Part shown: one piece after another, positions 52,931 to 60,483 of the stretch
How positions within the stretch are numbered: the first letter of the stretch is position 1
How the letters are laid out: every line of letters starts with the position of its first letter
Assembly: GCF_003710105.1 (NCBI RefSeq)
Contig: NZ_CP033325.1
Location: 1,984,001 to 2,048,000 of the forward strand
Length of the DNA stretch: 64,000 bases
Reading direction: 5' to 3'
From: Georgenia faecalis
GTDB lineage: Bacteria > Actinomycetota > Actinomycetes > Actinomycetales > Actinomycetaceae
Program-made: the position numbers and the translations under genes
The notes under the pieces: model-generated
Told to the model about the DNA's origin: nothing
The model's database searches: none
Seen by the model: only the letters and a program-made list of their open reading frames with translations

Positions 52931-52946
52931 TCGTACGCGTGTTCGA
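52931..52946. promoter_or_regulatory. LexA (SOS) box in radical SAM gene promoter
   Basis: TCGTAC-GCGT-GTTCGA matches the actinobacterial SOS box TCGAAC-n4-GTTCGA at 11 of 12 positions. It lies between a consensus -35 TTGACA (52920-52925) and a -10-like TCGACT (52943-52948), 9 bp before the start codon at 52955, so LexA binding would block transcription. Confidence 0.8.
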
Positions 52947-52954
52947 CTCCTCTC

Positions 52955-54091
52955 ATGCGGTGGGACGGGCAGGAGATCCAGGCCGACCAGGCGGGCGCGC
53001 TGCCGGGCCTCGCGCGCATGGCCGGGCTGCTGCGCACCGTCCGCACCCCGGAGTTCGCCGGCATCACCTTCCACGAGGTCGCCGCCCGCTCGGTGCTCAA
53101 CAAGGTGCCCGAGGCGTCGAGCATGCCCTTCCGCTGGACGGTCAACCCGTTCCGCGGGTGCAGCCACGCCTGCACGTACTGCTACGCCCGGGCGACCCAC
53201 CGCTACCTCGACATGGACACCGGGGCGGACTTCGACACCCAGATCGTCGTCAAGGTCAACGCCGTCGAGGTCCTGCGCCGCGAGCTCGCCCGGCCCGGCT
53301 GGACCCACGAGCAGGTCGCGCTCGGCACCAACACCGACCCCTACCAGCGGGCCGAGGGCCGCTACCGGTTCATGCCCGGGATCATCGAGGCGCTGGCCGA
53401 GGCCCGCACGCCGCTGTCCATCCTCACCAAGGGCACGCTGCTGCGCCGCGACCTCCCGCTCCTCGCCCGCGTCGCCGAGACCGTCCCGGTCTCGCTCGGC
53501 GTCTCGCTCGCCGTCCTCGACGAGGACCTCCAGCAGCTGCTCGAACCGGGCACCCCGACACCGCGGGCGCGCCTGGACCTCATCCGCTCCATCCGCGACG
53601 CCGGCCTCGACTGCCACGTCATGGTCGCCCCGATCCTGCCGTGGGTCACCGACTCCCGCGAGCACCTCGACGCCCTGTTCGCGGCCGTCGCCGACGCGGG
53701 CGCCTCCTCGGCGCACGCGTTCCCCGCGCACCTGCGCCCCGGCGTGCGCGAGTGGTACCTGGGGTGGCTCACCGAGCACCGGCCGCACCTCGTCGCCCGG
53801 TACCGCCGGCTCTACGGGCGAGGCTCGTACGTGAGCGCGGAGTACCGGGACTGGCTGCGCGAACGGACCCGGCCCCTGCTCCGCCGCCACGGCCTGGCGG
53901 GACGGTCGGGGTTGCGCGACGTCGGTGACGCGGAGCGGGCCGGGGCGGAGGCGATGGGGGTGATGGCCGCGTCGGGTGCCGCCAGCGCGGCAAGCGACGG
54001 CGCTGCGCCGGGTGACGGGGCACGGCCAGGCGACGGCGCCTGGGCTCCACCGAGCGCCCCGGACGCCGTCATGCAGCAGGCGCTGTTCTAG
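52955..54091 (+). CDS. Rv2578c/SplB-like radical SAM protein
   Basis: A 378-residue radical SAM protein. The cluster motif is NPFRGCSHACTYCYARATHRYL (split; Cys69, Cys73, Cys76), preceded by the family-specific TFHEVAARSVLNKVPEAS. The TIM-barrel continues with ALGTNTDPYQRAEGRYR, LSILTKGTLLRRDL and VMVAPILPWVTDS. The last 60 residues are Ala/Gly/Asp-rich and probably disordered. This family is related to spore photoproduct lyase-type proteins and is named SplB or Rv2578c-like. The mycobacterial homologue is reported in the LexA regulon, and a LexA box is present here too, supporting a DNA-damage role. The exact reaction is unproven. Confidence 0.92.
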   Translation: MRWDGQEIQADQAGALPGLARMAGLLRTVRTPEFAGITFHEVAARSVLNKVPEASSMPFRWTVNPFRGCSHACTYCYARATHRYLDMDTGADFDTQIVVKVNAVEVLRRELARPGWTHEQVALGTNTDPYQRAEGRYRFMPGIIEALAEARTPLSILTKGTLLRRDLPLLARVAETVPVSLGVSLAVLDEDLQQLLEPGTPTPRARLDLIRSIRDAGLDCHVMVAPILPWVTDSREHLDALFAAVADAGASSAHAFPAHLRPGVREWYLGWLTEHRPHLVARYRRLYGRGSYVSAEYRDWLRERTRPLLRRHGLAGRSGLRDVGDAERAGAEAMGVMAASGAASAASDGAAPGDGARPGDGAWAPPSAPDAVMQQALF

Positions 54092-54179: not shown

Positions 54180-55439
54180 TCACAGGTCGTGCTCGGCGAG
54201 CTCGCGGAACTCGTCGGGCACCCCACGGCCCCCGCGCATGGTCGCGGGCAGGTAGCCCACGGCGCCGGGCCCGAACTTGTCCCGGACGGCGTCCATCGAC
54301 CGGTCGAGCGCCCACCGCGCCGACCCCGTCTCCGAGCCGGGCCGCCACGGGTCCGGCGGCGGCAGCGGGAGCTCGAGCTGGATCGCCTCCTGGGCGGTGA
54401 GGTTGGAGACGGAGACGGCGAGCAGGCTGATCTCGGGCTCGTGCTGGTCTTGCTCGCGGAGCGCCTGCCACACGAGGCGCTCGGCGACCTCGGTGAGCGT
54501 GAGCGTCGCCGACACCGGCGCGGCGAGGGTGAGCGAGCGCGTGACCGCGCGCATCCCCGGGAAGCGCACCCGCACGGTGACGGTGCGGCCCGCCCGCCCC
54601 TTCGCACGCAGCCGCCCGGCCACCCGCTCGGCCAGGTGCCCGAGCACCTCGCGGACGAGCTCCGGCGTCACCCGGGTGCGGCCCATGGCCGACTGCGCCC
54701 CGACGGAGCGCGCCCGCGGCGACGCCGCCACGCGCCGCGGGTCGTCGTTGTGGGCGAGGGCGTGCAGCGTGGTGCCGGTGGCGCGCCCGAGGGCACGCTC
54801 GAGAGTCCCGCTCTCGGTGCGGGCGAGCTCGCCGATGGTGCGGATGCCCCGCTCGGCGAGCCGGCGTTCCGTCACGGGTCCGACGCCCCACATGAGGCCG
54901 ACCGGCAGGGGGTCGAGGAAGGCCCGCTCGTCGGCAGCGTGGACGACGACGAGGCCGTCCGGCTTGGCGACCTGCGAGGCGATCTTGGCCAGGTGCTTGG
55001 TCCGCGCCGCCCCCACCGAGATGGGTAGGCCCACCTCGGCGCGCACCCGCTCGCGCAGCCGCGTGGCGATCTGCTCGGGCGGGCCGAAGAGGTGGGTCGA
55101 TCCGGCGACGTCGAGGAAGGCCTCGTCGATCGAGATCCGCTGCACCGCCGGCGTCACGGTGCCGAGGATGTCCATCACCCGGTCGGCGAGGCCCTGGTAC
55201 TGGTCGAAGTGCGCGCGGACGAAGAGCAGACCGGGGCACAGGTGGGCCGCCCGCCAGCCCGGCATCCCGCCCTGCACGCCGTGCGCCTTCGCCTCGTAGG
55301 ACGCCGCGAGCACCACGCCGCCGGCGGCGCTGCCCCCCACCGCGATGGGCCGCCCCCGCAGGGACGGGTCGAGGAGCTGCTCGACGGAGGCGTAGAACGC
55401 GTCGAGATCCGCGTGGAGGATCGTCGGGCCCACCGTCAT
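54180..55439 (-). CDS. dinB: DNA polymerase IV (Y-family)
   Basis: A 419-residue Y-family polymerase. Palm/finger motifs: ILHADLDAFYASVEQLLDPSLRG (metal-binding Asp11), VVLAASYEAKAHGVQGGMPG, and ISIDEAFLDVAGS with the catalytic Asp-Glu pair. The thumb helix-hairpin-helix is in LMWGVGPVTERRLAERGIRTIGEL, and the little-finger domain includes KGRAGRTVTVRVRFPGM. It performs error-prone translesion synthesis. ATG 55439 lies 6 nt after a TACGAT -10 box on the minus strand, so the mRNA is probably leaderless, and a near-consensus LexA box sits directly upstream. Longer in-frame starts would run through the SOS box and are rejected. Confidence 0.96.
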   Translation of the reverse strand: MTVGPTILHADLDAFYASVEQLLDPSLRGRPIAVGGSAAGGVVLAASYEAKAHGVQGGMPGWRAAHLCPGLLFVRAHFDQYQGLADRVMDILGTVTPAVQRISIDEAFLDVAGSTHLFGPPEQIATRLRERVRAEVGLPISVGAARTKHLAKIASQVAKPDGLVVVHAADERAFLDPLPVGLMWGVGPVTERRLAERGIRTIGELARTESGTLERALGRATGTTLHALAHNDDPRRVAASPRARSVGAQSAMGRTRVTPELVREVLGHLAERVAGRLRAKGRAGRTVTVRVRFPGMRAVTRSLTLAAPVSATLTLTEVAERLVWQALREQDQHEPEISLLAVSVSNLTAQEAIQLELPLPPPDPWRPGSETGSARWALDRSMDAVRDKFGPGAVGYLPATMRGGRGVPDEFRELAEHDL

Positions 55440-55452
55440 CGCCCTATCGTAG

Positions 55453-55468
55453 TCGAACACACGTTCGG
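55453..55468. promoter_or_regulatory. LexA (SOS) box upstream of dinB
   Basis: TCGAAC-ACAC-GTTCGG matches the SOS box TCGAAC-n4-GTTCGA at 11 of 12 positions. It is 1 bp upstream of the dinB -10 box (minus-strand TACGAT, 55451-55446), overlapping the core promoter. Confidence 0.88.
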
Positions 55469-58784: not shown

Positions 58785-59339
58785 ATGTCCCCCGCCTCGC
58801 GCCCGACGCGCGCCGACCTCCTCGCCTCCGCGGACCGGACCCTCCCGACCATCGCCGCCCCCGGGCTGCGGGTGCTGTTCTGCGGGATCAACCCGGGCTT
58901 GTACTCGGCGTGGACGGGGCACCACTTCGCCCGGCCGGGCAACCGGTTCTGGCCGGCGCTGCACCGCTCGGGGTTCACCCCACGCCAGCTGGCCCCCGCC
59001 GAGCAGCTCGAGCTGCTCACCTGGGGCCTCGGGGTGACGAACGTCGTCGAGCGGGCGTCGGCGACGGCGGCTGAGCTCTCCCCCGCCGAGCTCCAGGCCG
59101 GCGGCGAACGGCTCGTCGCCGACGTCGAGCGGTACGACCCGGCGTGGCTCGCCGTCCTCGGCGTCACGGCCTATCGCGCGGCGTTCCACCGGCCGAAGGC
59201 GACGTTCGGGGAGCAGGAGCCGATCGGGGCCACGCGGGTGTGGGTGCTGCCCAACCCCAGCGGGCTCAACGCGCACTTCACGCTCGCCCGGCTCGCCGAG
59301 CGCTTCGCCGAGCTGCGGTCTGCCGCTACAGGACCGTGA
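58785..59339 (+). CDS. mug: G/U mismatch-specific uracil-DNA glycosylase
   Basis: A 184-residue Mug/TDG-family glycosylase. The catalytic motif is CGINPGLYSAWTGHHFA (about 33-49, with Asn36) and the base-intercalation motif is VLPNPSGLNAHFT near residue 156. LLTWGLGVTNVVERASATAAEL is also typical. It removes uracil or ethenocytosine opposite G in DNA. ATG 58785 is 8 nt after TAAGGT (58771-58776), a likely leaderless start. Its last 14 bp overlap tail-to-tail with the DUF429-RusA gene on the other strand. Confidence 0.95.
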   Translation: MSPASRPTRADLLASADRTLPTIAAPGLRVLFCGINPGLYSAWTGHHFARPGNRFWPALHRSGFTPRQLAPAEQLELLTWGLGVTNVVERASATAAELSPAELQAGGERLVADVERYDPAWLAVLGVTAYRAAFHRPKATFGEQEPIGATRVWVLPNPSGLNAHFTLARLAERFAELRSAATGP

Positions 59340-60483
59340 CGAGGATCGTGGCGCCCGTGTTCTCGCCCTCCCGGACGGTCCGCTTCGACGCGACGAGCCT
59401 GTCCACCCGCTCGTCGTCCGACTGCTCCGGTCCCGCGATCGCGCGTCGCCCGAGCACAGGGGTCAAGGCGTCCAGGGTGGGCTTGACCAGGTTGTCGAGA
59501 TCCCAGCCCTGGCCGGATCGCCATGGCGGCGGAAGCCGGAAGTGCATGGTGACCTCGAGGCGCCCGGGCAACGGGCCGTCGTCGGCGACCGCCGCGACCG
59601 CCGCCTGATGGACGGCGGCGCGCCACGGCCGCTCACCCGCGGTGGCGAACGTGGCGGGCACACCGCGGACCTCGAACGCCGTCATCACCGGGCGCTCAGC
59701 CACCGGCGCAGTGGACCGGTCGTCCGACTCACCGGCCACCGTCGCCACCCGCGCCGAGACCGGGTGGGTCGGGGGCGGCGTGGCGACGATGTAGCCGTCG
59801 GCGGGCGTGCCGTAGAGGTGCAGGGACTCCGGGGCCTCTCGCCACCGCCACGCGAGGTGCGCGCAGAAGACCGCGTCGACCTCGTCCTCGAGGCGTTCCA
59901 GATGCATGGGCCGTCTCGCGTCCTCTACCGCCGCTCGGATGCTGCGCCAGCGCTCGTTCGCCGGCAGTCCCAGGACGTCCACGGACTCCAGGTGTGCCAG
60001 CAGCTCGAGGAAGGCCGCCCGTCGACGCTCGAAGCTCCGACCTCCCTTCGCCTTGTACGGCAGGACGCTTCCGAGCTCGAAGAGCCCGACCATCGCCGGG
60101 TGCGGGTAGACCTCGATGCACGGGGGCACGCCCGCGGCATAGGTCGGGTCCGGGTCGAGCGTCCACCCCAGGCGTCTGGCGATCGTCGCGCCGCGAGGGG
60201 GGTTGAAGTAGGGGCGGGTGAGGTTGCTGGCGTGGCACGAGGCGCCGTACCGCCCGAACACGCGCGAGACCTCGCGCTCGCAGTCGCGCTGCCCGGACGC
60301 GTTGGTGACGATCAGTGGCGCATCCATCGCGGCGGCCCGGACGGGAGCGTGCGCGCCGACCCACGCGACGATCTCGTCGTCGGTGGTCACGCTGGCGGAG
60401 TCGACCAACCGGCCTGCACGGTCGACGGCGGCGAGGCCCGTCCGCGCCCGGTTGCTCCACGCCAGGTCCACGCCCACGTACAT
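59326..60483 (-). CDS. DUF429-RusA fusion: two predicted nuclease domains in one protein
   Basis: A 385-residue protein. Residues 1-225 match DUF429, an RNase H-like predicted nuclease: MYVGVDLAWSNRARTGLA (Asp6), AAMDAPLIVTN (Asp54), CEREVSRVFGRYGASCH, PPCIEVYPHPAM (Glu124) and DEVDAVFCAHLAW (Asp203). After a spacer, residues 265-385 match RusA-type Holliday junction resolvases: MTAFEVRGVPATFATAGERPWR, MHFRLPPPWR, GWDLDNLVKPTLDAL (Asp328, Asp330, Lys334) and QSDDERVDRLVASKR (Asp356/Asp357). The acidic and lysine positions fit RusA's active site. The start at ATG 60483 follows TAGTTT by 7 nt (leaderless). The neighbour is mug, convergent and overlapping by 14 bp. I know of no assigned role for this fusion. 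Confidence 0.85.
   Translation of the reverse strand: MYVGVDLAWSNRARTGLAAVDRAGRLVDSASVTTDDEIVAWVGAHAPVRAAAMDAPLIVTNASGQRDCEREVSRVFGRYGASCHASNLTRPYFNPPRGATIARRLGWTLDPDPTYAAGVPPCIEVYPHPAMVGLFELGSVLPYKAKGGRSFERRRAAFLELLAHLESVDVLGLPANERWRSIRAAVEDARRPMHLERLEDEVDAVFCAHLAWRWREAPESLHLYGTPADGYIVATPPPTHPVSARVATVAGESDDRSTAPVAERPVMTAFEVRGVPATFATAGERPWRAAVHQAAVAAVADDGPLPGRLEVTMHFRLPPPWRSGQGWDLDNLVKPTLDALTPVLGRRAIAGPEQSDDERVDRLVASKRTVREGENTGATILVTVL

What the first reader, a model, noticed from the sequence alone, without database searches (positions are those of the whole stretch)
59326..60483. DUF429-RusA fusion: an RNase H-like predicted nuclease joined to a Holliday-junction-resolvase domain
The N-terminal half keeps the acidic residues of DUF429 and the C-terminal half keeps the D-x-D-N-x-x-K and downstream D-D of RusA. 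RusA proteins are usually small and prophage-derived, and DUF429 proteins usually stand alone. A single chain with both, in a chromosomal setting beside mug and a few kb from LexA-controlled repair genes, may be a structure-specific nuclease for repair or defence.
Basis: partly seen in the sequence, partly recalled or inferred. Interest (0 to 1): 0.7.

Follow-up and report, generated by a model that had tools for sequence, protein, structure and literature searches.

The report
RNase H-like nuclease fused to RusA
One actinobacterial protein joins two DNA/RNA-cutting domains that normally occur apart, an RNase H/RuvC-like domain (DUF429) and a RusA Holliday-junction resolvase; the fusion is real, conserved in at least six genera and apparently undescribed, but whether it serves DNA repair or phage defence is still a prediction.

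Summary
A single 385-aa ORF (59326-60483, minus strand) carries DUF429 (residues 4-219, Pfam E 3e-20) and RusA (about 264-385). AlphaFold2 gives two confident domains joined by a disordered linker (246-263). Foldseek places the C-terminal half on E. coli RusA, and the N-terminal half weakly on RuvC/MOC1/TEFM.

It is not a sequencing join. The same fusion occurs in at least nine other actinobacterial genomes, and both halves are under purifying selection. The putative catalytic residues are conserved (D6, D54, E124, D200, D203; D328, D330, K334, D357).

On the DUF429 tree all fusions form one clade, sister to a clade that includes RelZ-type proteins (DUF429 + RelA_SpoT). RelZ of M. smegmatis, per literature, degrades RNA:DNA hybrids and R-loops. 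In three Georgenia species the RusA part is missing from the same syntenic locus. The RusA branch also exists alone, and fused to a uracil-DNA glycosylase inside a defence-like cluster in Pseudonocardia.

Best reading: a chromosomal, non-phage, two-headed nuclease for R-loops and branched DNA at blocked forks (inferred). Phage defence is a serious rival: DUF429 matches PADLOC candidate PDC-S44, but the fusion's neighbours are mostly not defence genes. No LexA box precedes it, mug adjacency is not conserved, and no phage relatives were found.

The parts
59326..60483 (-). Fusion gene, 385 aa, ATG start, TAG stop
   Evidence: single copy in a closed 3.43-Mb genome
59827..60474 (-). DUF429 domain (residues 4-219), RNase H/RuvC-like fold; D6, D54, E69, E124, D200, D203 almost invariant in 32 homologous domains
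   Evidence: Pfam PF04250 E 3e-20; PADLOC PDC-S44 E 1.5e-72; AF2; Foldseek TEFM, RuvC, MOC1; conservation
59695..59748 (-). Disordered linker (residues 246-263), pLDDT below 50, variable in sequence and length
59329..59694 (-). RusA-like domain (residues 264-385)
   Evidence: Pfam PF05866; profile to PDB 1q8r E 0.0017; Foldseek 1q8r E 2e-5
59482..59502 (-). RusA motif D328-L-D330-N331-L-V-K334, aligned with E. coli RusA D70, D72, K76
   Evidence: Profile alignment to 1q8r; D328 and D330 invariant in 23 domains, K334 in 21
59413..59418 (-). RusA D356-D357; D357 invariant in 23 domains, presumed equivalent of E. coli D91
   Evidence: the D91 equivalence is from knowledge of the family, not from a printed alignment
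58785..59339 (+). mug-type G/U mismatch DNA glycosylase, convergent, 3' ends overlap by 14 nt; a neighbour, not shown to belong to the system
   Evidence: NCBIfam NF007570 E 4e-55, Pfam UDG; not conserved next to other fusions

Best explanation
A chromosomal two-headed nuclease of Actinomycetota. The N-terminal DUF429 domain is a metal-dependent RNase H/RuvC-like endonuclease that cuts RNA:DNA hybrids or R-loops, as the related RelZ protein of M. smegmatis does. A flexible linker joins it to a RusA domain that dimerises and cuts four-way or other branched DNA. Together they would clear R-loop-blocked or reversed replication forks, or similar branched nucleic acids, as an accessory to RnhA, RnhB and RuvC. 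Shown here: the fusion, both folds by prediction, conservation of the acidic residues and of the RusA lysine, selection on both halves, common descent of the fusions, kinship with RelZ-type DUF429. Inferred: both catalytic activities, dimerisation, the R-loop/fork substrate and the physiological role.
For: DUF429 half: Pfam; 43% identity to the DUF429 half of a DUF429-RelA_SpoT protein; all fusions lie in one clade (99/98) whose sister clade (100/99) holds the RelZ-type proteins, whose RelA_SpoT domains were confirmed. RelZ is reported to hydrolyse RNA:DNA hybrids and R-loops and to be induced by UV (PMC7591505; PMC4429107). DUF429 is placed in the RNase H-like superfamily, in the clade with RuvC (PMC3985635); Foldseek gives TEFM, RuvC and MOC1. 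RusA half. Catalytic-type residues conserved. dN/dS about 0.1-0.35 in both halves. The genome already has RuvC, two RNase HI-type genes and RNase HII, so the role is accessory.
Against: No activity was measured. In RelZ the DUF429 part is reported to be inactive when separated from its RelA part (PMC7591505), so activity beside a RusA partner is not guaranteed. The RuvC similarity is weak (Foldseek E 0.009-0.05; hhalign probability 13%). No LexA box and no conserved repair neighbour. The distribution is patchy: 8 of 101 family genomes matched the query, only two of them with the full fusion, and three Georgenia species lack the RusA half.
Confidence: 0.42

Rival explanations
1. A single-gene anti-phage nuclease: DUF429 and RusA together attack R-loops or branched recombination and replication intermediates of invading phage or mobile DNA.
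For: The DUF429 half matches the PADLOC phage-defence candidate PDC-S44 (E 1.5e-72). Relatives of the RusA half sit in defence surroundings: between an Mrr-type and an HsdR-type restriction gene (L038), and fused to a uracil-DNA glycosylase next to DrmD-like helicase, PD-(D/E)XK and NERD-kinase genes (L029). One fusion (L031) has a HmaA/DrmD-like helicase within 5 kb. Some fusions lie near integrases or transposase-like genes (L043, L041). Patchy distribution.
Against: Only about 3-4 of 65 genes around the window gene and eight other fusions match PADLOC models at 1e-10. In Georgenia the locus is syntenic across four species, unlike a fast-moving island. Window GC is uniform and there is no tRNA. 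PDC-S44 is only a candidate system.
Confidence: 0.3
2. Only one half is catalytic: RusA acts as a junction-binding, dimerising and targeting module for the DUF429 nuclease, or DUF429 is a nucleic-acid-binding pseudo-nuclease (as in TEFM) that recruits RusA.
For: The best Foldseek match of the DUF429 half is TEFM, an RNase H-like fold without nuclease function (function from general knowledge). The RusA half is dispensable in three Georgenia species. One standalone RusA relative has S in place of the lysine (L035).
Against: All acidic catalytic-type positions of both halves are nearly invariant and both halves are under purifying selection; a pure binding module would not need them.
Confidence: 0.2
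3. A base-excision partner: the protein works with uracil-DNA glycosylases (mug next door; UDG-RusA fusion in Pseudonocardia), cutting branched or abasic intermediates.
For: mug is convergent and overlaps the gene by 14 nt; the RusA half of L029, fused to a UDG-superfamily domain, is the closest in sequence to the window's RusA half (53%).
Against: mug is not next to any other fusion examined; the convergent arrangement does not suggest one transcript; only one UDG-RusA fusion was seen.
Confidence: 0.05
4. Artefact: two genes joined by a sequencing or assembly error.
For: None found.
Against: Same architecture in at least ten genomes from different projects, one clade, purifying selection on both halves.
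Confidence: 0.01

Closest known systems
RelZ / MS_RHII-RSD of Mycobacterium smegmatis (MSMEG_5849)
   Same: N-terminal DUF429 domain of the sister clade (43% identity between this family and a RelZ-type relative), followed by a C-terminal partner enzyme domain
   Different: Partner is a RelA_SpoT (p)ppGpp synthetase, not RusA; RelZ has been tested in vitro and in vivo, this protein has not
E. coli RusA (Rac prophage Holliday junction resolvase, PDB 1q8r, 2h8c)
   Same: Predicted fold; D70/D72/K76 motif equivalents conserved
   Different: About 120 aa alone and prophage-borne in E. coli; here a C-terminal domain of a chromosomal protein in a branch with no phage relatives found
DUF429 family (PF04250; COG2410, COG4328, COG4923)
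   Same: Pfam score far over cut-off, RNase H-like fold, conserved acidic residues
   Different: Described fusions are to Nudix, phosphomethylpyrimidine kinase and RelA/SpoT domains (PMC3153485, PMC3985635), not RusA
PADLOC PDC-S44 phage-defence candidate
   Same: The DUF429 half matches model PDLC05019 at E 1.5e-72
   Different: The model covers only the DUF429 half; the defence function of the candidate was not found in the papers searched
SPP1 G44P (phage RusA-like enzyme with an N-terminal extension)
   Same: RusA domain at the C-terminus of a longer chain, cleaves Holliday junctions and, less well, D-loops (PMC3485210)
   Different: Phage-encoded; nothing in the passages read indicates a DUF429 domain, and no comparison was made here

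Membership tests
RusA (PF05866) | Profile match over the curated cut-off | tested here: met
   Domain alone 23.3 bits against 22.8; whole chain 20.0, just under; 17 of 18 related domains match at E<=0.01
RusA (PF05866) | RusA fold | tested here: met
   AF2 model, Foldseek 1q8r E 2.3e-5, target TM 0.66, probability 1.00
RusA (PF05866) | Catalytic Asp70, Asp72, Asp91 and Lys76 | tested here: met
   D328, D330, K334 align with D70, D72, K76; D357 invariant, D91 equivalence from family knowledge
RusA (PF05866) | Dimer that resolves four-way junctions | not testable with these tools
   Needs purified protein
DUF429 (PF04250) | Profile match over the curated cut-off | tested here: met
   73.3 bits against 23
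RNase H-like superfamily, RuvC clade | RNase H-like fold with acidic residues in strands 1 and 4 and the C-terminal helix | tested here: met
   Predicted strands E2-6 and E50-53, helix 192-216 carrying D6, D54, D200, D203; literature placement; Foldseek only weak, E 0.009-0.05
RuvC family proper (PF02075) | Sequence match to RuvC | tested here: not met
   No RuvC hit in Pfam; hhalign probability 13%; the genome has a separate RuvC
RelZ / actRel small alarmone synthetase | DUF429 followed by a RelA_SpoT synthetase domain | tested here: not met
   C-terminal half is RusA, no RelA_SpoT hit
RelZ / actRel small alarmone synthetase | RNase H activity on RNA:DNA hybrids and R-loops | not testable with these tools
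   Reported for RelZ (PMC7591505); not known for this clade
PDC-S44 defence candidate | Match to PADLOC model | tested here: met
   PDLC05019 E 1.5e-72
PDC-S44 defence candidate | Located among defence genes | tested here: inconclusive
   About 3-4 of 65 neighbours match PADLOC models; relatives of the RusA half are in defence surroundings in two loci

The most novel reading that the evidence does not exclude
A partner-swapping family of compact nucleases in Actinomycetota, in which RNase H/RuvC-like (DUF429), RusA and uracil-glycosylase domains are recombined into single-gene systems that sense and destroy R-loops or branched intermediates of invading DNA. The window protein would be the DUF429-RusA form, a new kind of single-protein phage defence using two junction-nuclease heads.
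Probability: 0.22. Interest if true: 0.72.

Novelty: new variant of a known kind. Interest (0 to 1): 0.48.

Why it matters
Both halves are predicted cutters of unusual nucleic-acid structures, and a fusion suggests that they act on one substrate. DUF429 is still a domain of unknown function in Pfam; one relative, RelZ, links it to R-loop removal and alarmone synthesis. A sister clade in which the alarmone synthetase is replaced by a junction resolvase makes it testable whether R-loop removal is the common function of actinobacterial DUF429. Georgenia offers natural pairs with and without the RusA half at the same locus.

Tried and rejected
Sequencing-error join: rejected. Prophage origin of the RusA half: no relatives in phage records, none confirmed in IMG/VR, only DUF429-alone proteins on plasmids. 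SOS control: no box within 350 bp upstream of the fusion or its homologues, best 3-4 mismatches. Operon or conserved cluster with mug: neighbours are not conserved. Replacement of a missing RuvC or RNase H: all are present in the genome. Direct sequence proof of RuvC kinship: hhalign too weak. PDB search with the single sequence found nothing. The original RelZ paper (PMC3416543) and the RusA-DNA structure paper were not held. RusA tree too short to resolve the order of fusion and fission.

Full report
Check of the observation. The minus strand of 59326-60483 is a single open frame of 385 aa, present once in a closed 3.43-Mb genome. Pfam finds DUF429 at residues 4-219 (E 3e-20) and RusA at 274-367 (E 1.1e-3; 20.0 bits, just under the cut-off of 22.8). 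Scanned alone, the RusA half scores 23.3 bits, over the cut-off, and 17 of 18 related domains match RusA. PHROGs gives a RusA-like resolvase at 1.3e-6. A profile of the RusA half finds E. coli RusA first in the PDB (1q8r, E 0.0017), with D328, D330 and K334 aligned to D70, D72 and K76. These are the genome's only DUF429 and only RusA matches.

Structure. AlphaFold2 on 17 aligned sequences gave mean pLDDT 88, two folded domains and one disordered linker at 246-263; pTM 0.65 fits two domains with no fixed relative position. Foldseek against the PDB lists E. coli RusA seven times at the top (E 2e-5 to 1e-3, target TM 0.62-0.69), and the viral library lists mostly phage RusA proteins. The DUF429 half, modelled separately, matches TEFM, Thermus RuvC bound to a Holliday junction and the chloroplast resolvase MOC1. 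These are among the best matches but weak (E 0.009-0.05). They agree with the published placement of DUF429 in the RNase H-like clade that contains RuvC (PMC3985635).

The fusion is real and conserved. A genome-contig scan with the RusA half gave 17 loci. Eight are DUF429-RusA fusions of 382-407 aa, all with the same order: Serinicoccus (three), Georgenia, Cellulomonas, Geodermatophilus and Nocardioides (two). A class-wide search added one more, L048. With the window this makes ten genomes. Both halves are under purifying selection (dN 0.06-0.16, dS 0.3-1.05 for pairs of fusions). D54, E69, D328, D330, D357 and K367 are invariant in all domains aligned, and D6, E124, D200, D203 and K334 nearly so.

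Relatives and history. On the DUF429 tree all ten fusions fall in one clade (support 99/98) that also contains three Georgenia proteins without RusA. Its sister clade (100/99) holds proteins with DUF429 followed by RelA_SpoT, the RelZ architecture, plus DUF429-only proteins. The simplest history is one DUF429-RusA fusion. The three Georgenia loci (genus assigned because they share a genus handle with G. satyanarayanai) are syntenic with the fused one of G. satyanarayanai and about 90% identical in DNA, but lack about 440 bp that encode RusA; each keeps an open DUF429 frame. The tree favours loss over gain, since the fused G. satyanarayanai protein and the deeper lineages are fused. The short tails at the C-termini of two of them (for example VSPDAR against VSPHAW) suggest in-frame deletion, though this is suggestive only. 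The RusA branch also exists alone in Micromonosporaceae, Streptosporangium and others, and in Pseudonocardia (L029) fused to a uracil-DNA-glycosylase-superfamily domain (Pfam UDG 31.6 bits over the cut-off of 24.3; profile to PDB finds UdgX/type-4 UDG, E 0.004). No relatives were found in phage records or IMG/VR.

Context. In the window, mug is convergent with a 14-nt 3' overlap, and a pyridine nucleotide-disulphide oxidoreductase gene ends 77 nt upstream on the same strand. No neighbour is shared across genera. LexA-type boxes lie at 52931 and 55453, next to a radical-SAM-like gene and dinB, but none precedes the fusion or its homologues. The surrounding DNA is compositionally uniform and holds no tRNA. 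RuvC, two RNase HI-type genes and RNase HII are present elsewhere in the genome, so the protein is accessory.

Repair or defence. For a nucleic-acid-stress role: RelZ of M. smegmatis is reported to hydrolyse RNA:DNA hybrids and R-loops and to be UV-induced (PMC7591505; PMC4429107; PMC4300193). For defence: the DUF429 half matches the PADLOC candidate PDC-S44; RusA relatives sit between Mrr and HsdR genes (L038) and in a cluster with DrmD-like helicase, PD-(D/E)XK and NERD-kinase genes (L029); and one fusion lies within 5 kb of a HmaA/DrmD-like helicase (L031). Against defence: of 65 genes around the window gene and eight other fusions, only about 3-4 match PADLOC models at 1e-10, and the Georgenia locus is stable across species.

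Mechanism. Shown: the fusion, the predicted folds, conserved catalytic-type residues, selection and kinship. Inferred: metal-dependent cutting by both domains, RusA dimerisation, and action on R-loops and branched DNA at blocked forks. The linker would let the two heads act on neighbouring parts of one structure. I put 0.42 on this reading and 0.30 on phage defence.

Novelty. Papers found here describe DUF429 fusions to Nudix, phosphomethylpyrimidine kinase and RelA/SpoT domains (PMC3153485; PMC3985635). None held in the library contains DUF429, RusA and fusion together. The two families are known and the combination appears undescribed, so this is a new variant of a known kind.

Noticed in passing
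L029:5290-6372 (+): Pseudonocardia pini protein joining a uracil-DNA-glycosylase-superfamily domain to the same RusA branch, in a cluster with a DrmD-like helicase, a PD-(D/E)XK nuclease and a NERD-kinase protein; looks like an undescribed defence-associated fusion.
   Followed up: partly
L038:5123-9826 (+): Standalone RusA-like gene lying between an Mrr-type (type IV) and an HsdR-type (type I) restriction gene in Nocardioides sp. 1609.
   Followed up: partly
L003, L004, L005 against L039:5780-6420: Three genomes of the genus of Georgenia satyanarayanai have the same syntenic DUF429 gene with the RusA part missing and the reading frame kept; a natural with/without comparison.
   Followed up: yes
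L006, L007: DUF429-RelA_SpoT (RelZ-type) proteins in the window's own family; the review read (PMC7591505) reports such proteins from environmental mycobacteria only.
   Followed up: partly
window 52931-52946 and 55453-55468: LexA-type boxes with one mismatch to TCGAAC-N4-GTTCGA, next to a radical-SAM-like gene (52955-54091, +; identification by eye) and dinB (54180-55460, -).
   Followed up: partly
L031:10914-12338 (-): HmaA/DrmD-like helicase (E 2e-100 to HmaA) within 5 kb of a fusion gene in Serinicoccus.
   Followed up: no
L033:5308-8722 (-): Standalone RusA gene near a phage-type integrase and a pSAM2-type RepSA replication gene, suggesting carriage on an actinobacterial integrative element.
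   Followed up: no
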